Shown here one piece after another: positions 5,597 to 63,832 of a DNA stretch of 64,000 nt (positions are counted from its first letter, which is position 1; every line of letters starts with the position of its first letter). The stretch is taken from the NCBI GenBank assembly GCA_030374765.1, contig JARGXX010000004.1:1364001-1428000 (forward strand), in the 5' to 3' direction. The notes beneath the pieces were generated by a model, which was given only the letters and a program-made list of their open reading frames with translations, did no database searches and had not been told where the DNA came from. The stretch is from Agarophyton chilense (Eukaryota; Rhodophyta; Florideophyceae; Gracilariales; Gracilariaceae). A program made the translations under genes and the position numbers.

Positions 5597-8212
5597 TCAA
5601 GGTTTGCGAAAGCGCTCTGAACACCAACAGGACACATTGGGGCAGCGCAAGAGTAACTCTGTCGTCTTCATTGGAACCTGGCGCAGCGAAACCGGGTCAG
5701 AGTCACCGGAGGAGCCTCCTGTACCAATAGGACCGGTCCCAGCGAGTCGAGCTCGCTTTTTCGGCGAAGATTCAGTTGAGGAACTATTTTCACCATCGAT
5801 AGCCTCCCGGTCACTCAAATTTAGACCATGGCGGGCATCAAAGTCGTCAGTAACCCTCTGGGACATCATGTTTGCATTCTGCTGCAGGAGATGGACCACA
5901 GAGGTCTTCAGATCCTGATCCTATTGAACAACCGCGGCGTAGCGCGCCGAGCGACTCGCCCAGGAGCAAGCTTTGCTCAAGACTGTCGCAATGTCCATCG
6001 GGGCAGTAATACCAAAGATACGGCAGATATGACGGAGATCCGTGGCTGCAGCCGTGACCGAAGCGGGAAAATGCGGAAAAGGAGAGGACGGAGCGATTTC
6101 AACGCCCCCAGTGAACGTTTGAGGCAGAGCATCACCTACAGGACTTTCGGCCTCGATATAGCAATGAGAGATGTCCACTTGGGCGACGGACGGCTCATAT
6201 GAGAGTTCATTTTGAGGAGCAGCGCCCGGGGGAGCTGGAGGAGGGGAAGCGGTCGGAAAGACAACAGCGGACTCGACCGGAGGGTTTACGCCCTCCACGG
6301 GTAGGACGAAGGCATCTTCCCTAAAGTATTCTCCATCGAACATACCAGCTGGAACCAACGGCGTGGCTTCCACATCAGGCTCGAAGCACAGGGGATCGAA
6401 ACCAATGGCCTTCCGGTAATAGTCGGGCATTTGACGCCTCGAAATGTGCGATGGTTGATGCCTCAAAGGCTTGGCGGGATAGGCACGAGCGTCTTCCCGG
6501 CCCTGCGGATGCAGCGGAATCGGCGTGAAAGAGTCGGTATCATAGTCATACCAAAGGAGTACGGGAGTCTTGCCCCACTCGACCTGTAAAAGATGATCCA
6601 CAAGGGCCTCGGCCTCCGTGACGGCTAACTGGGTCCCATGGACGATATTATAGATGCCCAGGGTCCTTAGGAAACGGATCATGATGTCCGGAAGCGGGAT
6701 TAGACGACCTCGAGGAACGGGCATGTTCTCGTCATGCCATACCCTCCAACCATCCGAACGGGCATTACCACGCCCTCCGTACTTCGCGGTATCCAGGAAG
6801 ACCATAAAGGACATCACGTCGAACTCAACGAAGAGTACCTGCCAGTACAATCAAGATCTTCGGCCATTGTCATCGCCCGTGCGTTGGGACGAACGATACG
6901 CCACTACGGACGGCGTGGGAACCAAAAAGAGCTGCGAGATAAGCCAATACTGCGCCCATTGGTTCTCATCCATGTGGGGAAGCGAGAGATATGACGTAGG
7001 ACGTTTGTCTGCGCTCATGTCGTGAAACTCCACCTGGGGCCAAAAGAAGAAGAACTACTAAGATTGACTCAAACGACCATCGGGCTCATGCATCTCGTTC
7101 CATTAGACTTTATTGGACATCCAAAACACGCTGCCATACGGCGGTCGGAAGCAATGAGCGCCAAAAGGTTGTTATCCTTCGAAGGATATCTCACATGAGG
7201 CGAGATGAAGTTCGCGTATAGGTCGGAGAGGAGTTTGTTCACCCTGAACTTGTATTTGGCTTCCTCTTCGCAGCGAACGTACGACATGTCTGCTTGGATG
7301 AGGGTGCGACAGCGCGTCGCCGAACGCGGATCCACAGGACAATGCAACCAACGGTTATACCACGAGAGGCTGCGCGCGTTCTTACTGCCCCTCCGGAAAT
7401 TGGGGATGTTGGCGAACTTCTGGGTGTCGATATACATATGACAGAACCTCTGGTATTCTTCCACAGAAAACGGCAGAATGGCATGACGAACTGCTCGTGG
7501 ATTTCGTCCGATGGTATGGTCATAGCGGTCCCCGTGGCCCTCATAAGCCACTTGGTATGCTGAAGAGCTTCCCGCTTGGTTGTTTGAAACCATGGTGCCG
7601 CTGAACACAGGTTGGTCCGCCGCGAAACGGATAGGAAAACAGACGGAAGGGAAAAAGTCCAGAGAGAGAATGGCATATCCCACGGGCTTTTAATGCGAGT
7701 TCAGCATCGCGGGCGACCAATGGAAAAGTACCACGATGGGAAGATGAGATGAGGTAATTGACCTGAGCGGGCTGAAAGACGTAAAACACGGTCGACGAAG
7801 CGCGTAGGGTCGCCAAAGAAAAAGCGGAGACTAAGGAAGGCCCCAATGACCGTCAGGGTATAATAAGCCAATTGACCATCTCGCCAACGCGACACGAAGA
7901 ATACGCCAGCGATGCACCTACGGCCATTGATCACAGCGCGTTTGAGTTTCAGTCCTCAGGCAAATCAATAGCCACCCCGGCGCCAATGTGAGCTCACACT
8001 TCCTCGCACCCCAGCAGGTGACGACAACGCGACGTCTCGTCGCGCCCCATGGTAATGGAAGCAACTAAGCGCTCACGTGCCCTAGTTGAATCATGAGGCA
8101 ATCTGGACTTCGCCGTGACGGTCGATTCTTTAGGAGGCCGATATTTGAAGGAGCAACGATAACGGTTGAGTTTTGTAAGCCGCCGGGGCCTGAGGTATCT
8201 TATAGACGCCAC
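5597..8212 (-). pseudogene. Antisense accessory frame relic of Gyp-B
   Basis: Long minus-strand coding-like stretch placed between the chromodomain of Gyp-B and its presumed 3' LTR, opposite to gag-pol. It is decayed and has several breaks. Short blocks resemble the antisense products of Gyp-C and Gyp-E: a region with PVPRGRLIPLP followed by an EAEALVDHLL-like helix, an upstream block ending GQLPHLIFPSW, and a C-terminal block with GITAPMDIATVLSKA. The order of blocks is the same as in Gyp-C, but similarity is low and was judged by eye. I recognise no known domain. It could instead be a fortuitous open stretch, but the shared placement and block order argue against that. Confidence 0.5.
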
Positions 8213-23400: not shown

Positions 23401-23708
23401 CTAGTTTTCCTCAGGCAACCAAACGTGAGTCACCTGCACCGTCCATGCAACAGCCTCGCGCACCAGTTGGCAGGAAGCGCCGGAGGGCTTGCAACTTGCC
23501 GTTTTCCTCCACCATCTTCGCATCACGATTGAGCGTTTTTTCTCGAGGCTGCTTGTAGTATTGTGATACCTGAAAATACAACAACTACCAGTCAAATAAA
23601 ACGAAATCGTTTGAATCGTAAAGACTTACCTTCGTACTTCGTAGCTGTGATAGAGATCATAACCCCGAGTGATGTGTTCCACTTGCGATCTTGTGAGAAG
23701 CTTAGGAG
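23401..23708 (-). CDS. Possible small spliced gene or exon pair, copy 1
   Basis: A clear minus-strand intron lies at 23629-23570 (60 nt, GTAAGT donor and TTTTCAG acceptor). The frame stays open across it: an upstream exon (from about 23708, acceptor TTCAATCAG) with TRSQVEHITRGYDLYHSYEV joins a 169-nt exon with RYHNTTSSLEKKRSIVMRRWW ending at a stop at 23401. The product is basic and unrecognised. No start codon is in the exon, so at least one upstream exon is implied but was not found. The stop is about 315 bp upstream of the receptor-like start codon, so these could also be untranslated leader exons of that gene. Confidence 0.35.
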
Positions 23709-23709
23709 C

Positions 23710-24691
23710 TGATTGAACGGTTTTGAAGGGTTACTCAAAGTTCGGCACTAAGTGCAAATTCCATGTCAAAACTGTGTTTGTTTCGAGCATGGAAGGAGCT
23801 GTTCATTAGATTTTCGAGAAGCTGTACTAGTGCATTTATTTGAGCTATTTGGAAACGATTGGGCACAAGTAGCTCTCGATCAACGTCAAATTCATTGGAC
23901 TACCTGATAGCGATAGAGTCGAGATCGGCTTTTTTGTCGGCTACGATTGCACTCTAGGTTCTTGCGCCCCGATCGCAAATCAAACACCTACCCTCCCATC
24001 CCTTGGAACAGAATATCTCCTGAGGAGATTGCTGAGTGCAGTAGACAGTCGTCTCTGCATCGCGATTGGCATGGCAGCCATCCCGACCCTGTGCAATAAA
24101 GATCTAACGCCTTTTTGCGTCTACTTAGCGATCAATAAAGAATGTTCAACCTGACTAGGACACGTTCCATGGCGAAGAAATTCCGGGCCCATGGATTCCA
24201 AAAAAACAGCAGTGACTGAATCTTTTAAGTTTGCAGTTCTAACCCTCTTACACCGTACCGGAGAGGGTTAAGGAAAGGAAGGAACAACCCCTCCGTTTTT
24301 TTGTTTCTTTGAAGCGGTGCGTAACGTTTTTTAGACGTTGTTTCAATATGCTTGAACATCAATGTAAAAGAACGTTTGGCAGTTCCACAACTGCAGTGCC
24401 CTTCAGTTTGTCACAATATGTTTGCAAGTTGCACACTTTTCGCGTTTGTCATTTCACACGAACCACGAAAATGAAAACCTTGTTCGATTGAAACGAAAAA
24501 CTGTTTCTTTTTTGTATCTTTCTGGTACAGATTTTCGCTTCAACAAAGTCTGTCTCGGTCAGCAGGGCAATAAAGGTATAATCGATTGCACTCACATGCT
24601 ACATTCACTCAGGAATTGAGGAGATAGTTTTCCTCTTTCCCGTCACAATGACGAAAATTGCTAAACAGTGCTAATCGTCTAACAAATCTTT
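23710..24691. other. Intergenic, no gene seen
   Basis: Between the small spliced exons and the 3' end of the 663-residue gene. Holds a 9-bp inverted repeat (taaccctct / agagggtta at 24240-24270) and no coding sequence I can support. Confidence 0.5.
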
Positions 24692-26683
24692 TTACCCTAC
24701 AGTTCTACCACCGCAAAGTATTCCGCGCTTCAAACTTTTAGTATCATCGAGTGTCGCGCGCTCTAGAACATATCTCATCTCATTCATTTTCAAAACCTTC
24801 ACACATCGAAATCCAGTGCCAAGGACGGCGTAAACATTCTTATCGTCGTGAACAACTGCCACTTGATTAAATATACGAGCCGGCATAACAGCCTCGATGA
24901 AATATCCATCGTCATCAAATTTTCTTGCACAGTTCTTAATAGATGAAGGACTATTCAGTGATACAGAGACTTTGCCCATATAGATTGCTTCAAGAGCCCA
25001 CAACGCGCTAGAATCGCCAAGTTGTCCAGATAACGCCAAGTCTAATACACCAGCTGTAGCGCGACCCTCATCAGCCCTATACTCTCCAAGATCCACTTGA
25101 ACAACTCCAGAAACTCCGAGGCCCGTAATACGCTTCGCGAAATGGACAGTTCCAGCTAAAAGCTTTGGTACGTGCGTCATACGAACTCTTTGATTTGATA
25201 CCGATAGGCTGCCAAAGCTCTTTAAAAAACTACATTGACTGCGTTTCTGCAATCGTTCTCCAGGGAACCATCCTTCTTTCGGCAGTATCCTCATTCCGTG
25301 TACTTCGACTCCAGATGAGCTAACCAACGGAATTTCTCTTGCCCAATCACTCAAATTGAAGAAATCAACCCTGTCATTATCAGATGCTTTTCTTTCGTTG
25401 TCAAGAAGATTGGAAAGCTCCCACCACTCGTTAATATGCTTTTTTGGCATTCCCACAGCATCCTCAATAAGCTCATCTGTGAGCAATTCTGGATGATCTT
25501 CATCTTCCATTGAAGCCATCTTCCTAACAATGCTTTCGTACAACCTAAGATCACGAAGCGCCATTTGAGCTTCCTGTTTTTGTTCAAGCACGGCAACTGC
25601 GGAAGTAATAAACATCATTGAGTCAAAGTCATCGTCTCTCAGGCACCAATTCAACTTAGACAATGCCACCGCGATATTTTGTCGATCAAAGAGACATGAA
25701 ATGTGAACGTCTCGGTCAGTTGCGGTCCAAGAATGCACCACCGCAGCTGCAAATCTACCAGATGTTGAACACTTGATATGTTCATGATCAATGGAAGCGT
25801 GACCTTCAGAAATAGAAATATTAAGAAAATTCTCATCGTTATCCCGAACACTAACGCAACCATTCTCAGCTTTCAAACAAAAATCGCGGACTATAGTAAA
25901 CAAAGTTCCCCATGTACCCTGTCGTGCCTTGAAGTATGAGCATAGAAATGACCCACCGAGAGGCCCTTCCAGCCCAAACAGAGACTGAAAGTCAGAAAGA
26001 AGTTTGAGATATGCCAAACCGATTATCTGAAGTGCAGTATTGTTTCCAACCGCGCGGTTGAAATTGTCAATCTGGACGACGGTGCGCGATGCATATCGAT
26101 TAATGTCCACAAAATGCATGCCCTGTCCGGGGTGCGCATCGAAACAGACGTTATCATCACAAACGACAAGATTCTTGCCATGGCAAGGCTTTATTTTTTC
26201 AGAGAAAACCGGAATAACTCCATCGGGATAGTCGAGAAATACTGCACAAAAAGCAGAAAGATCAGCCTCGCACATGGCTAAGATATCAAGTGCTTTACAC
26301 AAAAGAGGTGCAGCGTCCTGATCAAGATCACATCCGTGAGTACATCTCAGTGGTTGAAAAGGAGCACCATTGACACAGCCTTGGAACACAAGGAGTCTCT
26401 GTTGTGCACAGCCGATCAAAGTGACGCGACAAAAGTTTAACCGGTCGTGCAGTCGTTCGTTTTCGTAGGGAAAAAGGTCTTCTGGACGAGGAGGGACTAC
26501 TTCTGAACTCTGAGCAGTTGAGCCTTCCACCACAGCGCGGTATAGCTCAACAGCTTCGTACAGAGTTCGGTCGTCTTGGAGTGTGTCGGCGGCTTTTTGG
26601 ATGGCATGGGAAAGTTGGTGGGTTTGAGAGAGCTGGGAGAGAAGGATTCGTATTGTGTGGCGGATTCGAATGTAGGGATGCAT
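24692..26683 (-). CDS. Unrecognised 663-residue protein, copy 1
   Basis: Uninterrupted frame of 664 codons with an ATG at 26683 (MHPYIRIRHTIRILLSQ). I chose this start because both copies share it, while farther upstream the two copies diverge. No signal peptide or membrane span is evident. The N-terminal 70 residues look helical (SHAIQKAADTLQDDRTLYEAVELY), reminiscent of a repeat such as TPR but not diagnostic. A Cys-containing middle region has CTHGCDLDQ and an acidic stretch with EDEDHPELLTDELIEDA follows. I recognise no family. The coding sequence appears identical in the second copy. The duplicated block begins only about 95 bp upstream of the ATG, and in copy 1 the adjoining DNA looks like a copia LTR end, so the two copies have different promoter regions. 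It is transcribed in the same direction as the receptor-like gene 1.6 kb downstream. Confidence 0.65.
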   Translation of the reverse strand: MHPYIRIRHTIRILLSQLSQTHQLSHAIQKAADTLQDDRTLYEAVELYRAVVEGSTAQSSEVVPPRPEDLFPYENERLHDRLNFCRVTLIGCAQQRLLVFQGCVNGAPFQPLRCTHGCDLDQDAAPLLCKALDILAMCEADLSAFCAVFLDYPDGVIPVFSEKIKPCHGKNLVVCDDNVCFDAHPGQGMHFVDINRYASRTVVQIDNFNRAVGNNTALQIIGLAYLKLLSDFQSLFGLEGPLGGSFLCSYFKARQGTWGTLFTIVRDFCLKAENGCVSVRDNDENFLNISISEGHASIDHEHIKCSTSGRFAAAVVHSWTATDRDVHISCLFDRQNIAVALSKLNWCLRDDDFDSMMFITSAVAVLEQKQEAQMALRDLRLYESIVRKMASMEDEDHPELLTDELIEDAVGMPKKHINEWWELSNLLDNERKASDNDRVDFFNLSDWAREIPLVSSSGVEVHGMRILPKEGWFPGERLQKRSQCSFLKSFGSLSVSNQRVRMTHVPKLLAGTVHFAKRITGLGVSGVVQVDLGEYRADEGRATAGVLDLALSGQLGDSSALWALEAIYMGKVSVSLNSPSSIKNCARKFDDDGYFIEAVMPARIFNQVAVVHDDKNVYAVLGTGFRCVKVLKMNEMRYVLERATLDDTKSLKRGILCGGRTVG

Positions 26684-26786
26684 CTTGGACGTTCTGGGGA
26701 TCAACGGTAATTCGAAGGAGAATGGGTGCGTATAAACGATGACGCAGGCCACCGAAAGGATAGATGAATTACAAGTGCATTCATTG

Positions 26787-27388: not shown

Positions 27389-28311
27389 TGTGGAGCAAAA
27401 CCGGGCGACGGGAAGTGCTCTCAAGGTGTTCGAAGCCTTGCTCCCTGGGGGAGGCAGACTCAGAGACAGAGCCCTCCGTTCCACCCGTAGTGTGGGGTGT
27501 AACTCCCACGGGGGATTCCGGCAGTACCGACGGAGGTGAGGGGTAGAAACCGTTGGGTCGGGAATGGGTCTGGGTATCCCAAAGAATGGGGGAAAATCCG
27601 GCGAAGAGGAAAAACTGGGCGAGGGTCGGGCACTAACAGGCACCGGACCCGAGAACCAGAAAAGGGGCGAAACAACAAAAGAAACCCAATACAGGGGCGA
27701 AAACCTGTCCTCGAAAGGAAACACAAAAAGCACGCAACAAGTAAGCAGAACCCCCACGGGGTATCGTGCACGCAGGTCGTCTGAGCTGTCCCAAGGGGAT
27801 GGTTGCACGGAACCCAAACGTGGGCACTCTCCAAGTGGAGTCGTGTCCCTACGCAGGCGTTGCTAACCAGAGCTCGTTCCGGGTTGTAAGGCCGAAACGA
27901 TGGCGACGAAGAACCTCTAAAGGTATCGAAGACCAACCTTTTGTTTCCATTTACTCTGAGCTTCGGACTGTCAGATCTCGTCTCCCTAAGTAGGGCCCAC
28001 TAACTAAACTCTACTAATTACAGTAGTGCACACCTGCTCAGGGCCATACACGTGGAGATCCCACTGGCAGGGCCCAAAAGTCCAACTTTCTAACAAATAT
28101 CCGAAAATCGGTGCCAAAATTAAGCCACGTGTATCACGAGGCCAATCCAACCATGGGCCATCCGAATCTTCCCTTCATAGGCGAACTCTAACCAGAAAAC
28201 AGTGCCACCTCAGCACACCTTAGAGGGGATCATAGTCATAACCCTCGGAGGGTTCAATCCTCATTCCATGAGTTGCATCTTCAAGTATCCCCTACTGGGG
28301 GTTGCTCTACA
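27389..28311 (-). repeat. 3' LTR of Gyp-C (923 bp)
   Basis: On the plus strand it runs TGTGGAGCAA to TTGCTCTACA, TG...CA ends with a near-perfect inverted terminus. Partner of 38252-39175. Confidence 0.9.
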
Positions 28312-28324
28312 TCTCCCCCTCCTT
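28312..28324 (-). other. Polypurine tract of Gyp-C
   Basis: Minus-strand AAGGAGGGGGAGA directly against the 3' LTR. Confidence 0.8.
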
Positions 28325-28373: not shown

Positions 28374-28381
28374 TATATATA
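28374..28381 (+). promoter_or_regulatory. TATA-like box facing the Gyp-C antisense frame
   Basis: TATATATA, 50 bp inside the polypurine tract and 12 bp before the ATG at 28393. A similar box (61781-61786) lies at the same relative place in Gyp-E. The spacing to this ATG is too short for a normal leader, so transcripts may start within the frame or use an upstream element. Confidence 0.4.
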
Positions 28382-28392
28382 CTTATCTCCCA

Positions 28393-29790
28393 ATGGGGTC
28401 CTTCACCACTTCTGAGGATCGCCACAAAACCGGCACATCGGTACAACTTTCTTCTACTCCTCCGACTTTCGGCGATAAGCAACTTCTCGCAACAGCAGTG
28501 TCAACCAGCCCTCTCAAGGGAATGAACCCATACGTCCTCAACCCGCTCTCGGGGCCATCGGCCTCCGCGCCGGCGGAAAACGAAGCTCCCCAGCAGGGTG
28601 GATATTTCTCCGGTTTGGATGCGGCTCCGTCAGGTACCGAAACTTCCGCCTCGGCGAGCAACCGACATCCTCAGGAGGATTTGGACATTAACACGGTGGC
28701 GTGGAACTCCGCTCATGCGATGCCCTTGGTAGCAAACTCGAGAGGTTGGATCTCAAACGAATCCTTTCGAAGGTGGAGTTCCTTTACCGTTCCGGTGATA
28801 TATTCCCGCGCTCCGTGGTTCCATCCGACAGCGGTTCGCGACGATGAGCTCATCGACTCCTACGTGGAGGACGGCTTATTGCCGGGTGGCTTACCTGTCG
28901 AGGTTGTACGTTCTCCCGATTGGAGGGCGCGTGTAGCCATAGAGCCTCAGTATCTATACCGCGGTCGCGGGGAGTCCCTGGACAAGGCGCGCGCAGCGAT
29001 GGCGGCTCTGGCCTACCAGCGATTGGAGAGGTCACGCTTTGACCATCTGGTTCCCCCGGAGTACGGGTTCGATGTCGCCTATTACCGCACGTACTGTGAG
29101 GTCTCCCACGGGGATAATCTGGCAGCCTTTCCCGAAGCCGAGTTCCGCGGACCGGGTTTTCCTCTCCGAGAAGATATGCTCCAATGGAGTCGTCCCATCC
29201 TTCGGGCTGAATTCAGGTACCTTCAACGGCAGTTTACCCAGTATGGGTTCGATCGACGCGTGCGCTTCGAGCGCCGCTCGCGCTCCCGTTTCGGGTTCCT
29301 TATCCCGTATCCTCACGTGGAACTGGAGCGTATCCGTAACACGGCGAAGGTTGGGCGATTCGTGCCCCTTCCAGCTTGGTGGAGTAAGGTCGAGGTCCCC
29401 CGAGGGTGCTTTGCTGAACTGCCCCCGTGCATCTACTATATCGGGTCACGTTTGATGCACGACCCGAACTCGGGATACTGGGCCCTCGTTGCAGCCGAGT
29501 GGGCAGCCCGCGTAGCGGCGCATCTCCTCTGGGATGCTCATGACCATTTCCGTATCTGGTATATTCCTCCGATGCTACGGACCATCATGCGTCCGATCGA
29601 CCTTGTCCCAGCATTGGGTTCGGTCAGCAACGTGCATGACCTGTATCCAATCTTGGACGTGATCGACAACACCCAATGGGATCGAGTTCCAGTGGACAAT
29701 CAGCCCGCAGTGGAAGGATCCGCGCGAGACAAGTCTCTTGGCCAGTACGATCCGGGCTCCGGTAACTGGGTCTATTACAATCCCTTCTAA
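28393..29790 (+). CDS. Antisense accessory protein of Gyp-C
   Basis: Frame of 465 codons on the strand opposite to gag-pol, starting 81 bp inside the 3' LTR (ATG at 28393, MGSFTTSEDRHKTG). The N-terminal 100 residues are Ser/Pro/Ala-rich and probably disordered. From about residue 130 the product is folded-looking and Trp/Tyr/Arg-rich: VRDDELIDSYVEDGLLPGGL, RPILRAEFRYLQRQF, RRSRSRFGFLIPYPHVELE, GRFVPLPAWW, VEVPRGCFAELPPCIYYIG, YWALVAAEWAARVAAHLLWD. The Gyp-E antisense product matches these blocks in order. I recognise no domain family; nothing suggests an envelope protein, and no signal peptide or membrane span is visible. Antisense accessory frames are known in some plant gypsy elements such as Grande and RIRE2; homology to those was not tested. 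Confidence 0.7.
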   Translation: MGSFTTSEDRHKTGTSVQLSSTPPTFGDKQLLATAVSTSPLKGMNPYVLNPLSGPSASAPAENEAPQQGGYFSGLDAAPSGTETSASASNRHPQEDLDINTVAWNSAHAMPLVANSRGWISNESFRRWSSFTVPVIYSRAPWFHPTAVRDDELIDSYVEDGLLPGGLPVEVVRSPDWRARVAIEPQYLYRGRGESLDKARAAMAALAYQRLERSRFDHLVPPEYGFDVAYYRTYCEVSHGDNLAAFPEAEFRGPGFPLREDMLQWSRPILRAEFRYLQRQFTQYGFDRRVRFERRSRSRFGFLIPYPHVELERIRNTAKVGRFVPLPAWWSKVEVPRGCFAELPPCIYYIGSRLMHDPNSGYWALVAAEWAARVAAHLLWDAHDHFRIWYIPPMLRTIMRPIDLVPALGSVSNVHDLYPILDVIDNTQWDRVPVDNQPAVEGSARDKSLGQYDPGSGNWVYYNPF

Positions 29791-29888
29791 GGGGTTCGCC
29801 TCGACCGATGCCGGTGGGACACCCGACGGGGTTCATTTATACCGACGATTACGAGTAGGAGCCTCCAGTAGACCTGGACGATCCAGCG

Positions 29889-30212
29889 TTGGATAACGAC
29901 ATGCCAGCTCCTAGTGGAGTACTCTCTTTGGAGCCATCTGCACCCTTCCAACCAGTGGGAACGACCTCAGCTGCGGCGGCGAATGCATCCGGTGGCGGTC
30001 CATCTGCTCCCCTTGGGTGGGGTGTGAACACCCTTGCGCAGGCGCCGGTTGCCACTCCGCAAGCGGATAGTGTGCGACAAGGCCTCGTGAACGCGGGCAT
30101 TCCGATTCCCCCAGGTATGACGGATGTGAGCCAAATGTTGGCTTTCGCCTCGGCGTACCATCAGGGTCAGAATCCCAACGGTGGGGCGGGTCCCTCCTCG
30201 GGCTTTCCGTAG
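29889..30212 (+). CDS. Second antisense frame of Gyp-C
   Basis: Short plus-strand frame following the main antisense frame. It is Pro/Ala/Gly-rich with a C-terminal helix-like block RQGLVNAGIPIPPGMTDVSQ. Gyp-E has a similar-sized frame at the same place (63076-63378) with LRQFLLDAGFPNH, and the Gyp-B relic has GITAPMDIATVL. It may be a separate small protein or the C-terminal domain of the antisense product. Confidence 0.4.
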   Translation: MDNDMPAPSGVLSLEPSAPFQPVGTTSAAAANASGGGPSAPLGWGVNTLAQAPVATPQADSVRQGLVNAGIPIPPGMTDVSQMLAFASAYHQGQNPNGGAGPSSGFP

Positions 30213-30613: not shown

Positions 30614-30904
30614 TTACCCGACTTGGGCACGATCCAGATTTTGAGGCAAGGTTACCCGAGCGCGTCGGTGATAGGATAAAACCTTAGACCTCGGAAGGTG
30701 CTCAATGGGTTCCACTGTATCCTCATCAGGCGAGAATCCGTACCATCGGACTTGGTAGCGAACTTCTCCCTCGGGGGTGTAGATGTGACGCACGATGCGA
30801 TCGATAACGAATTCCTGCGGGTACACTTTTCCCTGTTCGGGCTTCTGTTCCATCTTGGAACGCTCTAGTTCCCTTGAGGGTGTCAACGTAGGGTTTAGAC
30901 ACAC
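30614..30904 (-). CDS. Chromodomain segment of Gyp-C
   Basis: 96-codon minus-strand frame downstream of pol. Its core is FVIDRIVRHIYTPEG...YQVRWYGFSPDEDT, a typical chromodomain with the aromatic W-Y-G-F strand, followed by a basic tail YHRRARVTLP. In chromoviruses this domain sits at the integrase C-terminus and steers insertion to modified histones. Here it lies about 210 bp beyond the pol frame. The homologous segment of Gyp-E (63832-63551) has the same tail. Confidence 0.8.
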   Translation of the reverse strand: MCLNPTLTPSRELERSKMEQKPEQGKVYPQEFVIDRIVRHIYTPEGEVRYQVRWYGFSPDEDTVEPIEHLPRSKVLSYHRRARVTLPQNLDRAQVG

Positions 30905-31113
30905 CCCGGTGGGTTCTTTTCCGTGTTGCGAGCTGGTCTCAGCACTTCGTCCAAACGGCGCCGAGTGGCCTGTGGGCTACGTTGTAACTTCCGTCTACGG
31001 AGTCCAAACGGCCCAGTTTTGAGTTTTTCTTAAAGCTGAGATCTTCCCGATAACAACAGTGTTCTTAGATTCCGTGACGGTTGAGAAACCGCGACGCAGT
31101 AGCGTCTCCAATC

Positions 31114-34100
31114 TCAGGGGTGTAAGACTTCAACGTCAACCCGAGCTACGGGGACGAAGGTTGCTCCCGTGCAACGCGCCGTGCGACGGAGGCGGTTTGC
31201 GCGACGGTTGGTCGTCAGAGCCTTTTGATTGGCTGGGTGCCATTCGACGTGTGCCACACAAATGCGCGGGCGCCCCGTGTGGGGTGACCGTTCCTTGTGC
31301 GGGAAAATCTGCATATGCGGATGTGAGGTGGCGCTTTCGACACGCGCTAGCACTCTCCTGAGCTGTCCCCGACGGGTCTCACTCATTTCTTTCCCATTTC
31401 TGAGGGTTCCAGTGTCTCCATAGGAGTTCCTATTCCCATTCCATAACGGAGAGCCAAATTTGGTCAACCTCGTCGTCGAGATCTTCCCCGTGCGGGTCCG
31501 CTGACACAGCTCGTTCCCGAGAAAGCGGGGTTTCAGTGTGCGACACCTCAGTGTCTCGTCCGCGGCGGCGGGTGATCGTCGGCTCTTTAGGCGTTCCGGG
31601 TGCGGAGTTCTCCACACGGCTCTCCCTAGGCGGGGTTTCGTCATCTTTTCTGACGTCGTGCTCGGCTGGGTCGGCGGTGATGTCGCTACCCATACGCTGG
31701 GGTTGTGACTTCTCTGTCGCCTGCTTGGTCGGGCTCGCCGTCTCACTGTGAGAACTAGATTCCCTGTTAGGGCGACTGGCTGACGCCGAAACATGTCCTG
31801 CGAAGGAACTGAGTCCTCCTCCCCCTCCTTAGGCGGAGAGCCAGGAGGCTTGATTACCTCCGGTGGGGGAGTAACTCTGTAAGAGTTCGTTGACTGGGCC
31901 CTTGAGGGAGTGGGCCCAGGTTCGGGAGTATCCGAAGTTTCCGGTAGGTCGGTTAAACCACGTTCCGGGTGCGGAAGTATAACGGGGCGGGTGTTCGAAT
32001 CTCCGCCTGACGGGTTAACTTCCGTTGAATCATCCCCTGTGGAGGGCGTTGGTGCCGACACCACTTCCACATTTGGGTTGGGCGCTCGTGTGATGCAGTC
32101 CCTGGAGATCCGTTCGTGGCGGTTAGCGATATCCAATACCACCGTGTCCGGGTCTACAGAAACCACACGATAGGGTCCGTCCACAATTGGCGAAAGCTTG
32201 TGCCTACGTTCCTTTTCAGGATTGTAGTATTCCTTTCGAAGGAAGACGAAGTCGTCGGGCTCCACCTGAGGTAGAGGTTTGCGAACCCGATTGTCAAAGT
32301 CCTTCTTGTAGGCGCGTTGAGCTTTGTCCATTGCTTTCCGGGCTATCGGCACCATCTTCGTAAGCCACTCCTTCCAGGCTTTTCGGTACAATCCCGGTGA
32401 CGGGTACTTCGACAGCGTCGGTTGAGCCTCGATGGCGACCGGCGGCGGTGTCCTCGACAGTACCAGTTCGAATGGGGATAACGATGTAACCCGATGTACC
32501 TGGGTGTTGTATGCATACGTGATAGCGTCTGTGTACAAGTCCCAATTTTTGGGGAGATCCGCAACATACGATCTCAAAGCGTTGAGTATCGTGCGGTTAA
32601 ACCTCTCCATCTGGCCATTCCCCTGAGGGTGATACGTAGTAACAAATAAATTCCTTACATCAAGGATTTGACATACATCCTGAAAGAACTTTGATGCGAA
32701 TTGCCCTCCGTTGTCGGATAACAACTGCACCGGCGGTCCATATACGAACACCCAATGGGTCACGAACGCTTGCGCGACGGTAGCGGCGGTGATCCGCTTC
32801 AGCGGCACAGTTCTCGTTAGCTTAGAGAACCTGTCAGAAATGACAAGCAGATACCGATGACCTCGGGGCGTCCTGATAAACTCCCCTAGGATGTCTATGG
32901 CCACGAATTCGAGTGGAGCCCGTGCCGGGAACAGCGTCAACTTCTTAGAGTGCTTCCGAAGTTTGACGTCATTCTTGGCGCAATTGGCGCAGGCCCGTCT
33001 GACGGCGTAACAATCGAATGCCATTGCCGGCCAGTAAAAGTCCGTTCTCAACGTGAGGTACAGTTTTCTTCCCCCGGGGTGGGCGCCAACCTTCACATAG
33101 TGAGTGAGGTGTAATACCCGCTGTTGTAGGGTGTGCGGCACCACTATCCTCGGGCGAGGTCCACACGGCACCACTATTCTCGGGCGAGGTCCAACGGTCC
33201 TGATTAGGTAACCCTGATCGTCGTCCTCGAAAGGTAACTGAAATCCTCCGTTGAGGCGAGCCCGAATCCGTGTACAGAATGGGTCGAGCTGTTGCTCGCG
33301 TATCATCTCCTCTGTAGAGATAGGTATAAAAGAGCCGGTCGGCGAATCCAGACTCTCGTTGACGAGTATATCGTCACAAACATCATCCGTCAGCGGTTGA
33401 GCTCCTCCCTCGAGGTCCGATACCATAAAACATGGGATGTCATCGTCCTCGTAGGGTTCCGTTTCCGCTGTGGTTCCCAAGCGGGATAGTGCATCAGCCT
33501 GAGTGTTCAGCTTCCCTTTCTTGTACAGGATCTCAAAGTCGAATTCCGACAGTCGGAGACGCCAGCGCATAAGGCGGCCCGAGGGTTCGGAGATCTCCAG
33601 GAGCCAACGCAAGCATGCGTGGTCCGTATGGACTTTGAAACGAGTACCCATCAGATAGGGGCGAAGTGTAGCTAAGGCCCACAAAACGGCTAAACATTCT
33701 TTCTCGGAGACCGAGTAGTTCCTTTCATGGACATTCAGGGAACGCGACCAGTACCCAATAGGGTGACGTTCACCATCCTCAGAGGATTGGAACAGTGCAC
33801 ACCCTACTTGGTTTGCACTAGCATCGGTGTCCACTTCGTAAGGGAGCCCAGGATTGGGTAGAGCCAAGATTGGCGGTGATGTTACGGCATTCACCAGTGC
33901 CGTGAAGGCAGACGCTTCCGCGTCGCCAAAAGGTTCCAGTTCAACTGGTTGTCCCTTCGTCAGGAGCCTGTTGAGGGGGGTGGCAATATCCGCAATGTTC
34001 GGGACGAATCGGCGATACACGTTACACAGACCTAAGAAGGATCGCAACTCCGTTTGAGTTTTCGGATGTTTTGCTTCCTTCAAGGATTTCACTCGTACTT

Positions 34101-35991
34101 CATCGATTGAAAGCTGTCCGGGACGGATGATATGACCCAGATACTTAACCGAATCGGTGAAAAACTCGCACTTCTTGAGTTTCAAGGTGATTCCCGCGTC
34201 GCGGAGTATCTTCATTACGTTCCTGACGTGTTCGAGGTGGTCATCCAGGTTGTTGGAGAAGACAATAATGTCGTCTAAATACACTAGACACGTCCTCCAC
34301 TTGAAGGGAGCCAACAGAATGTCTATCGCCCGTTGAAACGTTGCGGGGACATTTGTCAACCCAAAAGGCATCCTCCGGAATCGGAAAAGTCCTTGATGAC
34401 ACACGAAAGCCGTTTTGTCTCGATCTTCCTCCCTAATAGGGACTTGCCAGTAGCCCGAATTGGCGTCGAGGGTAGAGAAAACAGTAGCGCTCCCAAGGGA
34501 GTCGATGTATTCGTCCATCCGAGGGATCGGGTACACATCCTTAATGGTTACCTCGTTCAGGCGTCTGTAGTCGATGCAGAAACGCCACGATCCATCCGGT
34601 TTCGGAACTAACACCACGGGTGAGGCCCAAGCGGACTGGGCAGGTTCAATTACGCCCGCTTTAAGCATCTTCTCCACCTGAGATTTCTCCTCTTCCCGAG
34701 CTTTCGGTCCAGCCCTGTAAGGGTGTTGGGCAATAGGCCGAGTGTTCGGTAACAAGTCGATGCGGTGTTCTGTAATCCCAATAGTTCCAAGGGAACCATC
34801 CCACATGGGGGTAAATTCACGAAGCATGTGCCTCAGCTTCTCCCGATGAGATGCGGGTACATGGTTGAGATCCCATTTCTCCAATTCCTGAACAGGATCC
34901 GTCTGGTCTGCTCCTGTGATAGGGGCCGTAACCTCCTGAGGTTTAAAGTGTTCAGCGTGTGGAGCTGCAGTCGTATGCTCACCGTCTTCCGCGATTTCGG
35001 CAGTGTCCTCCCCCTCCTTAGGGTCCGCCACACCAAGGACCTCTGCGATAGAGATCTTTGTAGGTACGACCGCATGCGGGTGTGGAAGAACAGAACCCAG
35101 GATCTGGTGTTTGACCAAATGCTGCGTTGTCTTTCCAAAGTTGGCTACCAAAACCTTGAAAGGTTTATCCGGTTCCACGGAGACAACCCCATTCGCAAGG
35201 GCGAGTTGACGCCGCGTATACAGAGACGGGTTCGGTTGTACCACATGCACACCAATTTGCTTGGTAACAACTGTGACCCAAACCTGGGTTTCTGGCGGGA
35301 TAGCCACTGACTTCGCAACCTCTACCCGTGTAGACACCGGGTCCTTCTTCACAGATTCCTGCGCGACAGGGAGAGGAACGCGTATTCGCGCTGCTCCCTG
35401 TAAGGGTTTACGAACGATTGGGATCGTAGACCCGTCTTCGAGTTCCACAGTTCTATTCCGAGGACGGATGGCTTCCACGAGGCGGTCGCAAAAGTCACAA
35501 CCCAGTATGACTGGTGCTGCAAGTGACTTGCATACAATAAACTCTAGCTGAACGAGATAGGAGCCTAACCTCACCATGAGGGAAATTGTACCCAGTGTCC
35601 ATAGTGGGTTGTTGTTCGCATCGGCGATATCCAAACGTGGACCGGTACGAACTTGAACTCGGAGCAGCGGGGGTAACAATTCAACATGAATTAAGTTAGG
35701 AGCGGCTCCTGTATCCAGGACAGATATTTGACGAACCATAAACTGGTTGGACAGGCCGAAGTCGGCGAATACTTTATAATTCCGCTTGGCCATTACCATA
35801 ACTCGATCCGGAATACGGAGATTACGGGACCGTATCCACGGGCGACGGAGGACACTAAAGTATCCCGAGTTAATGTCGGTGTCAGCCGTTCTCCTTGAAA
35901 GGATAGTCAAAGCTGGGGAGCAAAGCTGGAGCGCCTCGGGCGTCTTCAACTCCGGCTTAAAAGACGCCCCTCCCGCAGGGGAGACTCCCAA
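31114..35991 (-). CDS. Pol polyprotein of Gyp-C
   Basis: Uninterrupted frame of about 1600 codons. Order of domains: retropepsin (VLDTGAAPNLIH, about residue 90), reverse transcriptase (FRRMPFGLTNVPATFQR and YLDDIIVFS), RNase H (DTDASANQVGCALF and the ERNYSVSEKECLA block), integrase zinc domain (HLTHYVKVGAHPGG, then CANC), integrase core (DILGEF, LLSDNGGQF, GQMERFNRT), GPY/F module (GPYRVVSVD), then a low-complexity Pro/Ser-rich C-terminal region of about 250 residues. It ends before the chromodomain. No ATG marks the start at 35991, which suggests expression by the read-through or frameshift usual in the family. Confidence 0.88.
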   Translation of the reverse strand: MGVSPAGGASFKPELKTPEALQLCSPALTILSRRTADTDINSGYFSVLRRPWIRSRNLRIPDRVMVMAKRNYKVFADFGLSNQFMVRQISVLDTGAAPNLIHVELLPPLLRVQVRTGPRLDIADANNNPLWTLGTISLMVRLGSYLVQLEFIVCKSLAAPVILGCDFCDRLVEAIRPRNRTVELEDGSTIPIVRKPLQGAARIRVPLPVAQESVKKDPVSTRVEVAKSVAIPPETQVWVTVVTKQIGVHVVQPNPSLYTRRQLALANGVVSVEPDKPFKVLVANFGKTTQHLVKHQILGSVLPHPHAVVPTKISIAEVLGVADPKEGEDTAEIAEDGEHTTAAPHAEHFKPQEVTAPITGADQTDPVQELEKWDLNHVPASHREKLRHMLREFTPMWDGSLGTIGITEHRIDLLPNTRPIAQHPYRAGPKAREEEKSQVEKMLKAGVIEPAQSAWASPVVLVPKPDGSWRFCIDYRRLNEVTIKDVYPIPRMDEYIDSLGSATVFSTLDANSGYWQVPIREEDRDKTAFVCHQGLFRFRRMPFGLTNVPATFQRAIDILLAPFKWRTCLVYLDDIIVFSNNLDDHLEHVRNVMKILRDAGITLKLKKCEFFTDSVKYLGHIIRPGQLSIDEVRVKSLKEAKHPKTQTELRSFLGLCNVYRRFVPNIADIATPLNRLLTKGQPVELEPFGDAEASAFTALVNAVTSPPILALPNPGLPYEVDTDASANQVGCALFQSSEDGERHPIGYWSRSLNVHERNYSVSEKECLAVLWALATLRPYLMGTRFKVHTDHACLRWLLEISEPSGRLMRWRLRLSEFDFEILYKKGKLNTQADALSRLGTTAETEPYEDDDIPCFMVSDLEGGAQPLTDDVCDDILVNESLDSPTGSFIPISTEEMIREQQLDPFCTRIRARLNGGFQLPFEDDDQGYLIRTVGPRPRIVVPCGPRPRIVVPHTLQQRVLHLTHYVKVGAHPGGRKLYLTLRTDFYWPAMAFDCYAVRRACANCAKNDVKLRKHSKKLTLFPARAPLEFVAIDILGEFIRTPRGHRYLLVISDRFSKLTRTVPLKRITAATVAQAFVTHWVFVYGPPVQLLSDNGGQFASKFFQDVCQILDVRNLFVTTYHPQGNGQMERFNRTILNALRSYVADLPKNWDLYTDAITYAYNTQVHRVTSLSPFELVLSRTPPPVAIEAQPTLSKYPSPGLYRKAWKEWLTKMVPIARKAMDKAQRAYKKDFDNRVRKPLPQVEPDDFVFLRKEYYNPEKERRHKLSPIVDGPYRVVSVDPDTVVLDIANRHERISRDCITRAPNPNVEVVSAPTPSTGDDSTEVNPSGGDSNTRPVILPHPERGLTDLPETSDTPEPGPTPSRAQSTNSYRVTPPPEVIKPPGSPPKEGEEDSVPSQDMFRRQPVALTGNLVLTVRRRARPSRRQRSHNPSVWVATSPPTQPSTTSEKMTKPRLGRAVWRTPHPERLKSRRSPAAADETLRCRTLKPRFLGNELCQRTRTGKISTTRLTKFGSPLWNGNRNSYGDTGTLRNGKEMSETRRGQLRRVLARVESATSHPHMQIFPHKERSPHTGRPRICVAHVEWHPANQKALTTNRRANRLRRTARCTGATFVPVARVDVEVLHP

Positions 35992-35993
35992 GT

Positions 35994-38024
35994 TTAGTTT
36001 TTCGAAGCGGACCCCACCGAATTCGGTGCAGCTGCCTCGAAGGGGACCGGTTGTTCCCCGTTCGCGAGTACAAGTTCTGTATCCCTGTCAGCAAGGTGAG
36101 CTCGGAGTATCCTTTGTTCCTCATAGGACCTACTCGGGACTCGAGCTTTCTCCTCAGGGGTTAGAGCCTCGTACTGAGCGATAATTCGTGAACCCTCCCG
36201 CAGGGGAAATGTGCAGTCTGGTGCTTTCTGACCACAGAGGTAACACAAATAGCAAATCAGCTCTGCCGGGTTCGGTTGTGGACTTGAATCCACGCGACGT
36301 GGTGCTGTATCCCTCCATCCGGGGCGAGAGAACCGAGCAGCGGTATTCGCAAAAGGTAGCGATGCGGCTGGCACCCTCTGTCCTTGGGTATAGAGCGCAG
36401 GGTCTTCATCCGTAGTCGGAGCGGATGTCGACGGCAACTCAGATGTACCCATAGATTCGGGGTTACTTCCCATGAAGTGAATGTTACCATTGACCCCCAC
36501 AGGGGCAGGGCCTCCTGCGAGTGACAAAGACGAGTTACCTCCATCGGCGAGGAGTGCACTTGTCGGCCGACTCTTTCGGTTCTGCCGGGCACGGAGAGTA
36601 TCCCCCTCAGCCTGGGCGTACTGAACCAGTTCCAAGTAGGTCAACTTGCGCTTCTCTTCCCGATGTCGGGCAACCAATGCCCTTATCGAGGGGTCCAAAC
36701 CATCCACAAACATGGTGCATCTCTCGTAGGCGGGGAATACATTCCCGCATCGGTGAAACGCTTTATTCAAGCGAGTTGAATACACCGTTTCGGTTTCCAT
36801 CGGCTTCTGCCGCGTATCCCTTAATTCAAGGATTGCTTCCTGAATCGCATTTCCAGTAGCGTATGACCTCAAGAGGTACTGCACCGCTTCGGGCCAGCAC
36901 GTGACTCCCCCTTCCGAGGCTCAGGATGATCCACGGACGGAAATGAACTGGTCTTCAGCCATTCCCTTTAAGAAATAGGGTAATGAAAGATACGCTTGCG
37001 CTTCACTCATACCGAGGATGTCAGCCTCCTGGACGAACCTCGCAAGGAAATCGAGCACCAGAATTGGGTCTGTTCCTGTGAACTCACTCTTCTGTAGGGT
37101 GATGCTCAGCCTTTTGATGTAGTCCTTGACCTTACCCGTTCCGCGGGATGTTCGATCTCCCGAAGGGTTATCCAACCGGTAATAGCGGTACGATAGCAGC
37201 TTCCGATAGAGAGGATTCGTCGGCTTCAGCTCCCTTAATCCAAGGTGTTTCCTACCCTTCTTCCGGGTACGGATTGCCGCTTGAGAGGTGTAAGTAGCCT
37301 TCGACCGAGTCGCCCGGGATGACCGGCGTCCATCTTCACTATCCGAAGATTCGGAGGACGAACTCGATGACGAGCGATTGGGATCGGAATCCGATAAATC
37401 CTCTTGGGGGTGAACCCTCTTCTTGGACTTGCGGCGGTCCCGTTTAGCGGAGCGGTGTTCTTCGTCTTCCGAAACGTCGGGTTTATCCTTCGAGGCTTCT
37501 GTGTCTCCGTCCATATGGATAATGGCCTCGAGGGTGTCCAGCCCAGCTCAGAAGCGTTCCGCTTGCACGCGGTGTTCCTCCACGAGGCTCCGGTACTCCT
37601 GGATAAAGACCCCAGGGGTACCAAAGCTTTCCAAAAGGGAGTTCACATCCCTCCTGAGGGTACGAAGGTCATCGGCGACTCCCCGCACCTGGGCGTCCTC
37701 CACCTTGCGGCGGAGGGTAGTAACCTCCTGAAGGAGCTCGACGTGAGCCGCGTTGGCGATATCGATTCGAGTCTCCAGGCGCTGTAATTCAGGGTCGGCC
37801 CGAGTTCGGGGTGCTGCTGAGGGGGTCTCCACCACTGGAGCTGGGCCCACAGCCACGACCTCTCGAGGACCTGAAACCACTGAGGGTGCTCTCCGAGTGT
37901 CCGGATCGATACCGGAATCGTTCCGATCTTCGGGAATTGAGTTCCTCGACCTAGGCGGGGCCGGGGGCACTGAATCCGCTTGACGGTTCGATCCAGTCCT
38001 GGAACCACGGGTAATCGGCGACAT
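35994..38024 (-). pseudogene. Gag region of Gyp-C
   Basis: Minus-strand coding region upstream of pol. The first part is acidic/Pro-rich and contains a predicted coiled coil (DPELQRLETRIDIANAAHVE). The middle part starts with charged KRDRRKSKKR and Ser-rich stretches, then a capsid-like helical region (YYRLDNPSGDRTSRG, FLARFVQEADILGMSEAQAY). The last part has RQWP-type capsid C-terminal features and a Cys-rich CYLCYLCGQKAPDC knuckle. It carries a few breaks. Confidence 0.65.
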
Positions 38025-38251: not shown

Positions 38252-39175
38252 TGTGGAGCAAAACCCGGGGACGGGAAGTGCTCTCAAGGTGTTCCAAGCC
38301 TTGCTCCCTGGGGGAGGCAGACTCAGAGACAGAGCCCTCCGTTCCACCTGTAGTGTGGGGTGTAACTCCCACGGGGGATTCCGGCAGTACCGACGGAGGT
38401 GAGGGGTAGAAACCGTTGGGTCGGGAATGGGTCTGGGTATCCCAAAGAATGGGGGAAAATCCGGCGAAGAGGAAAAACTGGGCGAGGGTCGGGCACTAAC
38501 AGGCACCGGACCCGAGAACCAGAAAAGGGGCGAAACAACAAAAGAAACCCAATACAGGGGCGAAAACCTGTCCTCGAAAGGAAACACAAAAAGCACGCAA
38601 CAAGTAAGCAGAACCCCCACGGGGTATCGTGCACGCAGGTCGTCTGAGCTGTCCCAAGGGGATGGTTGCACGGAACCCAAACGTGGGCACTCTCCAAGTG
38701 GAGTCGTGTCCCTACGCAGGCGTTGCTAACCAGAGCTCGTTCCGGGTTGTAAGGCCGAAACGATGGCGACGAAGAACCTCTAAAGGTATCGAAGACCAAC
38801 CTTTTGTTTCCATTTACTCTGAGCTTCGGACTGTCAGATCTCGTCTCCCTAAGTAGGGCCCACTAACTAAACTCTACTAATTACAGTAGTGCACACCTGC
38901 TCAGGGCCATACACGTGGAGATCCCACTGGCAGGGCCCAAAAGTCCAACGTTGTAACAAATATCCGAAAATCGGTGCCAAAATTAAGCCACGTGTATCAC
39001 GAGGCCAATCCAACCATGGGCCATCCGAATATTCCCTTCATAGGCGAACTCTAACCAGAAAACAGTGCCACCTCAGCACACCTTAGAGGAGATCATAGTC
39101 ATAACCCTCGGAGGGTTCAATCCTCATTCTATGAGTTGCATCTTCAAGTATCCCCTAACTGGGCGTTGCTCTACA
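38252..39175 (-). repeat. 5' LTR of Gyp-C (924 bp)
   Basis: Partner of 27389-28311 with about ten differences noticed by eye, mostly near the ends. Confidence 0.9.
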
Positions 39176-46751: not shown

Positions 46752-46762
46752 GCTTGGGGCTG

Positions 46763-61780: not shown

Positions 61781-61786
61781 TATATA
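61781..61786 (+). promoter_or_regulatory. TATA-like box facing the Gyp-E antisense frame
   Basis: CTTTATATACCCG, about 33 bp inside the polypurine tract and 107 bp upstream of the ATG at 61893, a spacing that allows a normal leader. Confidence 0.5.
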
Positions 61787-61892: not shown

Positions 61893-63378
61893 ATGAATCC
61901 TTACGCGCCGCACAACACCAACAACGGAGACGTACCCTCAGAGGGTCTTTACGCCAGCAGTAGCTTCAACTCGCAGTCTGCGGCACCTGCGGCCTTCCGA
62001 TCAATGCGGTCTCCTCGCGTGATTTTCCACTCCTTGCCCTTACAGCCTTCGACTTCAGGTGTGATGTCGAATGCGGGTTATGTATCCTCCGCTGGGATCA
62101 ATCGAGCGCCGTCTCGTCGGGCTCAACGCAGCTATCCACATCTCACGGACTTTGTGGGACGAGACCCTCTCGACGAATCTGACCTCTTCGCGCAGGCTCC
62201 CTGCTTCGACCCAGTCGCTCTTCGCGATGACGCGTTGATCAGCCGGTACGTCTTCAGCGGTTACATTCTAGATGGACTTCCTTATGCGGATATCCGCAGC
62301 CACAATTGGCTTACTCACCGTGCTTTGCCAGATATCGTGGTTGCCGCCGACGAATGGCGCGGCTTACGCGATGTACGCGATGCGGCACTCTGCTTTCGCC
62401 GGCCCCTGCTCCGTGCGGACTTCCACTTCCCTAACAAGAGAGACATTACTTATTGAGATTTTACTCGTTGGGAACGACGTACGAGATCCCGCTTGGGGTA
62501 CCTGCTTCCATACCAAATGATCGAGATTGATGGAGTTAGGCGGGATGCTCGCGTCGGGAGGTATGTCGCGCTGCCAGAACAATGGGCGGAGATCGAGAGC
62601 CCTCGTGGATGTCCGGTGGAGCATCCTCCTACCATAACCTATATCCGTTCCGCGTTGATTAACGACCCGTTCTCGGGATACTGGACGGTCGTGTTCTCCG
62701 AGTTCATTGCTAAGATCGCAGCGTATATCCTCTGCGATGCATACGATACCTATCGTGTTCGGTACATGTCGCCAATAGCGCGGAGATATGCGAGACAACT
62801 CGATCTTTCCTTTGTGTTGGGGTCACGTGCCAATTATGACGAATTCCTACTCTTGGTGAACTAGATCGACAGTACCGACCGGCATGGGGTTCCATTGGAG
62901 CAATCAGCTAGAAGCACCAACGGTGCGTCATCGAGATCACTCGCCGGGACGCACTGCTATTGCTGGAGATTTTGTATGGTACAATCCCTGGACCAGCCAG
63001 ATAATCAAGCCCGATCAGGCTCGTGACCTTCGTGCGAATCCTAGGGAGTTCCCTTAAAATCAGCGTTCTGGATATTTGTACCAGTCCACACCTTCCGAGT
63101 TTGCAGATCAGGAGTATGAAGAAGCTGCAGGTGCTGATGCAGAACTCGATTTCGAGGATGAAGCTGAACTATTCCGTACTGCGCCAGTAACGGCTGGTTC
63201 GCCACCAACGGCTACGACATCGGGTGTCAATCCGTCGATGGGATACTATCATAGGTTCGCCCAACAACCGAGCGATGCGGAAGATCCCTTTTTGGCACCG
63301 TTGAGACAATTCCTCTTAGACGCGGGTTTCCCAAATCACATCTGCAAGGCGATCGTGCTGCGCTTATCGGCATGCTGA
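61893..63378 (+). pseudogene. Antisense accessory frames of Gyp-E
   Basis: Plus-strand region opposite to gag-pol, ATG at 61893 (MNPYAPHNTNNGD). Blocks shared with Gyp-C in the same order: LRDDALISRYVFSGYILDGL, FRRPLLRADFHF, RRTRSRLGYLLPYQ, GRYVALPEQW, IESPRGCPVEHPPTITYIR, PFSGYWTVVFSEFIAKIAAY, CDAYDTYRVRYMSP, VWYNPW. The N-terminal part is again Ser/Ala/Pro-rich, and the C-terminal part is acidic with LRQFLLDAGFPNH. It is decayed, with a few breaks, but still easily aligned. Function unknown. Confidence 0.65.
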
Positions 63379-63550: not shown

Positions 63551-63832
63551 TTAGCAGCCGCTCCGCGAAATCGCGTCTAGAAAGCCCACTATCGCGGCGT
63601 CGATCTCCGCAGGGAGTGGTACTCGAATGCGACGATGATAACGCACAACCTGCGAGCGCGGGATATGAGTTATAGGTTCCCATGTATCCACTTCCGGAGG
63701 AAACCCGTACCAACGGCTACAATACAGTAGTATGTGGTTGTCTACGTCTTCGCCATGATCGATGATGCGATCTATGACATATTCCTGGGCATTTCCCAAC
63801 GTTTCGTCGGATGGCGAGAGGGTTCGGTTCAC
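63551..63832 (-). CDS. Chromodomain segment of Gyp-E
   Basis: Minus-strand frame with YVIDRIIDHGEDVD, CSRWYGFPPEVDTWEPITH and the basic tail YHRRIRVPLP. Close to the Gyp-C chromodomain in the core and tail. It marks the 3' end of the sense coding region; the rest of pol lies outside the window. Confidence 0.78.
   Translation of the reverse strand: MNRTLSPSDETLGNAQEYVIDRIIDHGEDVDNHILLYCSRWYGFPPEVDTWEPITHIPRSQVVRYHRRIRVPLPAEIDAAIVGFLDAISRSGC

What the first reader, a model, noticed from the sequence alone, without database searches (positions are those of the whole stretch)
28393..29790. Conserved antisense gene in a chromovirus lineage (Gyp-C, Gyp-E, and distantly Gyp-B)
Three separate gypsy elements in this window each carry a long frame on the strand opposite to gag-pol, always between the chromodomain segment and the 3' LTR (28393-30212, 61893-63378, 5597-8212). 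The Gyp-C and Gyp-E products share at least eight motif blocks in the same order (for example GRFVPLPAWW / GRYVALPEQW and PRGC..E.PP.I.YI); Gyp-B looks like a distant relative. Conservation at protein level between diverged elements implies selection on the antisense product. I recognise no known domain. Antisense accessory frames are known in plant Grande and RIRE2-type elements, but similarity to those is untested.
Basis: partly seen in the sequence, partly recalled or inferred. Interest (0 to 1): 0.88.

Follow-up and report, generated by a model that had tools for sequence, protein, structure and literature searches.

The report
Antisense gene in seaweed retrotransposons
A family of jumping genes in what is most likely a red seaweed carries an extra protein gene written on the opposite strand; comparison of diverged copies shows that natural selection has kept this protein, but what it does is not known.

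Summary
The antisense frame is real and protein-coding. Gyp-C's frame 28393-29790 is the broken copy of a gene whose conserved start is an M(N/D)P codon at 28522. 91 scored genomic copies match it at 93% or more; 55 of 91 have no stop, and 47 of those 55 have frames of 640 aa or more. Gyp-E carries a decayed relative. Intact relatives in the genome and one public protein (P0001, 48%) align end to end. Between L049 and L051, dN/dS in the antisense frame is 0.15; the three sense frames have 20-40 stop-containing codon pairs. Gyp-B has its own antisense frame, matched in 128 places, but kinship with Gyp-C/E is unproven. The host is most likely a red alga. No known domain was found and structure prediction failed. 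A pol-deleted derivative (29 junction copies) keeps gag and the antisense gene open in both copies read, which were picked for good antisense frames. [quoted passage not shown] this is a new, apparently unrelated protein family of that kind. Most likely an element-encoded accessory protein; its function is inferred.

The parts
27390..28311 (-). 3' LTR of Gyp-C (element lies on the - strand)
   Evidence: 98.8% identical to 38252-39175, TG...CA ends; flanking five bases do not match
28312..28324 (-). candidate polypurine tract next to the 3' LTR
   Evidence: read from the sequence; inference
28374..28379 (+). TATATA, candidate promoter element of the antisense gene
   Evidence: 148 bases before the conserved start codon; exact TATATATAC in 11 of 20 other copies
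28522..29790 (+). antisense gene of Gyp-C, 5' part from the conserved M(N/D)P start (longer frame opens at 28327, first ATG 28393)
29859..30212 (+). antisense gene of Gyp-C, remainder, in another frame in this broken copy
30614..30976 (-). chromodomain segment of Gyp-C
   Evidence: called a chromodomain from its sequence pattern, no Pfam scan of this piece was run
31114..36087 (-). pol of Gyp-C (RT, RNase H, integrase)
   Evidence: Pfam
35994..37547 (-). gag frames of Gyp-C (two pieces in this copy)
38252..39175 (-). 5' LTR of Gyp-C
61781..61786 (+). TATATA before the Gyp-E antisense gene
   Evidence: 112 bases before the start codon at 61893
61893..63375 (+). antisense gene of Gyp-E, broken (pieces 61893-62453, 62457-62861, 62860-63054, 63058-63375)
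63584..63832 (-). chromodomain segment of Gyp-E
5921..6850 (-). antisense frame of Gyp-B; kinship with the Gyp-C/E gene unproven

Best explanation
Gyp-C and Gyp-E belong to a lineage of chromodomain-bearing Ty3/gypsy retrotransposons, in a host that is most likely a red alga, with a third gene between the chromodomain end of pol and the 3' LTR, read from the opposite strand. It encodes a protein of about 560-580 residues of unknown fold. SHOWN: the frame is protein-coding and has been under purifying selection between subfamilies; it is about as common in the genome as the family's gag and RT; a derivative that lost RT and integrase but kept gag still holds the gene open in both copies read. 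INFERRED: it is transcribed from a promoter in or just inside the 3' LTR (TATATA 112-148 bases before the start codon), and the product is an accessory protein of the element, most likely a regulator that favours the element's own expression or replication, as has been proposed for Grande GENE23 and is known for retroviral antisense proteins such as HBZ. That pol can be lost from copies that go on spreading while gag and the antisense gene stay hints that the product works together with Gag or on the RNA of the copy that makes it.
For: w 0.15 (dS 2.16, dN 0.31) for L049 versus L051 in the antisense frame; three sense frames with 20, 40 and 28 stop-containing codon pairs. Third codon positions 30% identical against 50% and 55% for first and second between families A and L049. 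Within family A, substitutions shared by two or more copies w 0.60 with 0 stops against 2.1 expected; pol shared w 0.43. 89 invariant columns in five full-length sequences including P0001 from another source. Probe counts of 250 antisense, 275 RT and 307 gag. Derivative: 29 copies spanning the junction; gag 691 aa and antisense 650 and 640 aa open in L043 and L048. TATATA in Gyp-C and Gyp-E.
Against: No transcript or protein evidence. The within-family signal is modest: for substitutions shared by three or more copies it is not significant (w 0.66, p 0.12), and the sense frame that shares third positions shows a similar ratio (w 0.65; 0.30), though that frame holds stops. Openness of 55 of 91 copies is close to what neutral decay after insertion would leave (about 0.66 by my arithmetic). 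L049 and L051 were picked for long frames, so their lack of stops is by choice (the w value is not). L043 and L048 were picked for good antisense frames; among the 4 derivative copies that occur's table, 3 have no stop and 1 has two. Retention beside gag may be passive. The TATATA is not seen before the L049 frame and is changed in 9 of 20 family-A copies.
Confidence: 0.6

Rival explanations
1. The antisense RNA is what matters (double-stranded RNA or interference with the genomic RNA), and the open frame is incidental.
For: An antisense transcript would overlap the genomic RNA; PMC7264820 discusses such a role for plant elements.
Against: Selection is on codons: w 0.15 in this frame, third positions free to change. 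An RNA role may still exist besides the protein.
Confidence: 0.07
2. The protein is a self-limiting factor: it lowers the element's copy number rather than helping it (as proposed for copy-number control in other retrotransposons; recalled, not looked up).
For: Compatible with all the sequence data; a selected accessory protein need not be an activator.
Against: The gene is kept in abundant families (250 probe matches) and in a spreading derivative, which gives no sign of limitation.
Confidence: 0.12
3. The protein is structural, a Gag partner or an envelope-like particle protein, encoded antisense.
For: Kept together with gag in the pol-less derivative.
Against: No strongly hydrophobic stretch (best 19-residue hydropathy 0.93-1.33 in three proteins), so an envelope role is unlikely; no similarity to Gag. 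A soluble Gag partner is not excluded.
Confidence: 0.12
4. It is a recently captured host gene or a nested foreign mobile element, without function for the retrotransposon.
For: Unknown domain, opposite orientation.
Against: The same position in diverged families: 10 of 11 places with a recognisable chromodomain segment have it on the opposite strand after the frame (the exception, L051, is a local inversion). Family A is closer to P0001 (52%) than to L049, L050 and L051 (31-32%), so the gene split is older than the split from P0001's source unless transfer occurred.
Confidence: 0.06

Closest known systems
Maize Grande (GENE23) and rice RIRE2 antisense frames (aORF-3R; PMC7264820)
   [quoted passage not shown] conserved; unknown function. 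GENE23 is described as nuclear with its own promoter
   Different: Host lineage; no sequence relation found, though their sequences were not compared directly; here the element has a chromodomain
Retand antisense ORFs with the TRP28 domain PF04195 (PMC11963269, passages)
   Different: PF04195 was not hit by any of the five family members; Retand is a non-chromovirus plant lineage
Boty brtn of Botrytis cinerea (PMC7264820; reference seen in PMC8365987; original paper not held)
   Same: Antisense gene in a gypsy-type element outside land plants
HBZ of HTLV-1 (passage in PMC11963269)
   Same: Protein encoded antisense in a retroelement, nuclear regulator; a model for how this could work
   Different: Analogy of arrangement only; no similarity known

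Membership tests
LTR retrotransposons with an antisense additional ORF between pol and 3' LTR (aORF-3R of PMC7264820) | ORF antisense to gag-pol, between pol and 3' LTR | tested here: met
   Gyp-C in the window; 10 of 11 Gyp-E-type places with a recognisable chromodomain
LTR retrotransposons with an antisense additional ORF between pol and 3' LTR (aORF-3R of PMC7264820) | Present in most copies of the family | tested here: met
   Probe counts of 250 antisense, 275 RT, 307 gag; probes differ in sensitivity
LTR retrotransposons with an antisense additional ORF between pol and 3' LTR (aORF-3R of PMC7264820) | Conserved to a degree like other element proteins | tested here: met
   Shared substitutions w 0.60 against pol 0.43; w 0.15 between subfamilies
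LTR retrotransposons with an antisense additional ORF between pol and 3' LTR (aORF-3R of PMC7264820) | Antisense transcript from its own promoter | not testable with these tools
   Only TATATA motifs 148 and 112 bases before the start codon
Retand TRP28 antisense proteins | PF04195 (Transposase_28) domain | tested here: not met
   hmmscan of five members at E up to 5 listed only PF02817 (0.093) and PF09823 (0.23), one member each. A genome-wide search also gave none, but its control did not ring
Grande GENE23 / RIRE2 antisense proteins | Sequence homology | tested here: inconclusive
   Database searches returned only P0001; the plant sequences were not compared directly, and the search scores only candidates sharing exact words
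Boty brtn | Sequence homology | not tested
   Sequence not available; paper not held
Gyp-B antisense frame as a member of the Gyp-C/E family | Sequence homology | tested here: inconclusive
   blastp E 0.063, hhalign E 0.0034 with probability 9.4%, no hmmsearch hit; only one 308-residue piece was available

The most novel reading that the evidence does not exclude
Chromoviruses of red algae carry an ancient superfamily of antisense genes (Gyp-C/E and Gyp-B being deep branches) whose product acts in cis with Gag, so that gag plus the antisense gene is what a pol-borrowing copy must keep: an element-encoded regulator or anti-silencing factor that arose independently of those of land plants and fungi.
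Probability: 0.2. Interest if true: 0.72.

Novelty: new member of a known kind. Interest (0 to 1): 0.5.

Why it matters
Antisense accessory genes of LTR retrotransposons are a known puzzle without an established function. A protein family of this kind in what is most likely a red alga, with clear purifying selection and a natural gag-plus-antisense derivative, adds an apparently independent case far from land plants and fungi, and an abundant system in which to ask what such proteins do.

Tried and rejected
PF20151 as a basidiomycete marker was uninformative: no control rang.

AlphaFold2 with the sequences allowed (P0001 and pieces of the window) gave mean pLDDT 37.6 and 35.9; no fold search was run on such models. 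Viral contigs: 23 pattern matches, none a relative. Plasmid records: no match. PDB: none. NCBIfam: none. Origin from Gag: not supported (E 0.67).

L051 seemed to have its chromodomain on the same strand as the frame; it is a local inversion of about 138 bases in that copy. Openness of copies within family A (55 of 91) was not used as evidence of selection. The selection script stopped with an error at the second gag piece (7 copies only); the antisense and LTR regions were not reached in that call.

Full report
WHAT IS THERE. The window is G000:C4:1364001-1428000 of a 79.8-Mb assembly in 135 contigs. Gyp-C lies on the minus strand: 5' LTR 38252-39175, gag frames 37547-35994, pol 36087-31114, chromodomain segment 30976-30614, 3' LTR 28311-27390. 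The LTRs are 98.8% identical with TG...CA ends; the flanking five bases do not match, so no target-site duplication is seen. Between the chromodomain segment and the 3' LTR the plus strand holds the frame 28393-29790.

THE FRAME IS PART OF A LONGER GENE. Of 1784 first-look candidates 91 were scored; all 91 are 93% or more identical to the query. By my count of that table, 55 of 91 have no stop over the matched stretch, and 47 of these 55 have an open frame of 640 aa or more. In rows with stops the tool's frame length reads through them, so I do not use those lengths. The window copy lacks 37 bases in the alignment of 21 rows and its frame ends early. Aligning L006 (family A), P0001 (581 aa, 48% identical over 90% of the query; the only public homologue, where only about 8000 word-sharing candidates were scored), L049, L050 and L051 puts the start at a conserved M(N/D)P, window 28522, and gives 89 invariant columns of 659. 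Three of these proteins have pI 5.2-6.4 and no strongly hydrophobic stretch. Pfam at E up to 5 gave only PF02817 (0.093) and PF09823 (0.23), one member each.

SELECTION BETWEEN SUBFAMILIES. L049 versus L051, antisense frame: dS 2.16, dN 0.31, w 0.15, 0 of 554 stop-containing codon pairs (the two were picked for long frames, so the zero is by choice; w is not). The sense frames have 20 of 554, 40 of 547 and 28 of 547 stop-containing pairs with w 1.23, 0.30 and 1.93; the 0.30 belongs to the frame that shares third positions with the antisense frame, a shadow as expected. L006 versus L049: codon positions 50, 55 and 30% identical, 35% of residues over 543 codons; synonymous sites are saturated, so no ratio. 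L049 versus L050, close copies, give w 0.72.

SELECTION WITHIN FAMILY A. 21 rows: the window and 20 of the 91 copies, 18 of the 20 without stops. Substitutions shared by two or more rows: w 0.60, excess of synonymous changes in 0.75% of shuffles, 0 stops against 2.1 expected; shared by three or more: w 0.66, not significant (p 0.12). Singletons: w 0.78, 5 stops against 11.8 expected, a figure biased by the choice of copies. The sense frame sharing third positions shows w 0.65 for shared changes. Pol, 19 rows: shared w 0.43, singletons w 0.94 with 22 stops against 19.4 expected. Gag piece 35997-36920, 21 rows: 17 shared changes, w 1.21, uninformative; the second gag piece failed. This fits selection before insertion and neutral decay after it; the 60% of stop-free copies is near the 66% that I reckon for neutral decay.

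OTHER FAMILIES. The Gyp-E piece finds 151 matches; among the listed ones, eight rows without stops have 611-aa open frames, and L049, one of these, was read. In one search, 18 sequences were searched for the Gyp-E chromodomain: 11 match, 10 of them on the strand opposite to the antisense frame and one (L051) on the same strand because of a local inversion; in the other seven no match was found. Gyp-B has its own antisense frame with 128 scored matches of 883 candidates; the longest frame in a row without stops is 748 aa. Its kinship with the Gyp-C/E gene is unproven. A fourth gypsy element, Gyp-D, has its pol frame ending at 46751 and its 3' LTR beginning at 46763, so it has no room for such a gene.

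A POL-LESS DERIVATIVE. Of the 20 family-A copies fetched, 7 have internal pol deletions of five kinds; L043 and L048 share the deletion 31940 to 35979, and L029 and L033 share another. A 201-base query over the L048 junction gave 40 scored matches of 578 candidates, of which 29 (L048 included) span it over 199-201 bases at 97-100% identity. So this derivative spread, or was otherwise copied, after losing RT and integrase. L043 and L048 have gag open over 691 aa and the antisense frame over 650 and 640 aa; both had been picked for good antisense frames. Of four derivative copies identifiable's table, three have no stop and one has two. The other copies could not be read. Probe counts with up to two mismatches: 250 antisense, 275 RT, 307 gag; reversed-probe controls 0.

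HOST. The pol search (residues 1000-1400; 184 hits, 120 listed) names two organisms, Agarophyton chilense and Chondrus crispus; Agarophyton is a florideophyte red alga, and Chondrus is recalled to be one. The genome has 15 phycobilisome matches, 14 on contig C39, which looks like a plastid, and nine light-harvesting protein matches. A red alga is by far the likeliest; another phycobilin-bearing alga is not formally excluded. The source organism of P0001 is not given.

HOW IT MOST LIKELY WORKS. A promoter at the 3' LTR side: TATATA at 28374 (Gyp-C) and 61781 (Gyp-E), 148 and 112 bases before the start codon; exact TATATATAC in 11 of 20 family-A copies and none seen before the L049 frame. Translation yields an accessory protein; a regulator of the element is the leading idea by analogy with Grande GENE23 (nuclear, own promoter: PMC7264820) and HBZ (PMC11963269). 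Location, partners and direction of effect are inferred.

WHAT IS KNOWN. [quoted passage not shown] PMC11963269, PMC8365987, PMC2864245, PMC3411680, PMC3248453 and PMC12477816 were seen as passages only. No listing showed a title on antisense genes of red algal retrotransposons; only aimed at red algae, the library holds open-licence papers only, and three red algal genome papers tried are not held. Absence from print is therefore not shown.

VERDICT. A real, selected, antisense-encoded protein gene. The kind is known; the protein family, and probably the host lineage for this kind, look new.

Noticed in passing
window 20498-26786 and 40465-41003 + 47909-53663: A 6.3-kb repeat at 99.1-99.9% identity, each copy with a long - strand ORF (707 and 695 aa); the first ORF has no Pfam hit. 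The second copy is split by Gyp-D.
   Followed up: partly
window 41004-47910 (Gyp-D): A gypsy element with 99.9% identical LTRs (41004-42151, 46763-47910) and a 1626-aa open gag-pol frame, so very recent; no antisense gene.
   Followed up: partly
window 1020-1236 and 61519-61736: The end of the Gyp-E-type LTR recurs at 95% identity near the start of the window, on the same strand, just before Gyp-B's pol.
   Followed up: no
L051 50-253: Local inversion of about 138 bases that flips the chromodomain segment in this one copy.
   Followed up: yes
L029, L032, L033, L042, L043, L044, L048: Five kinds of internal pol deletion in 7 of 20 family-A copies, several with short overlaps at the junction as from template switching.
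   Followed up: partly
window 5921-6850: Gyp-B's antisense frame recurs in 128 scored places, with stop-free rows up to 748 aa: a second, possibly separate, antisense gene family in the same genome.
   Followed up: partly
window 10918-13629: A copia-type pol (integrase, RVT_2) with a 903-aa frame on the - strand.
   Followed up: no
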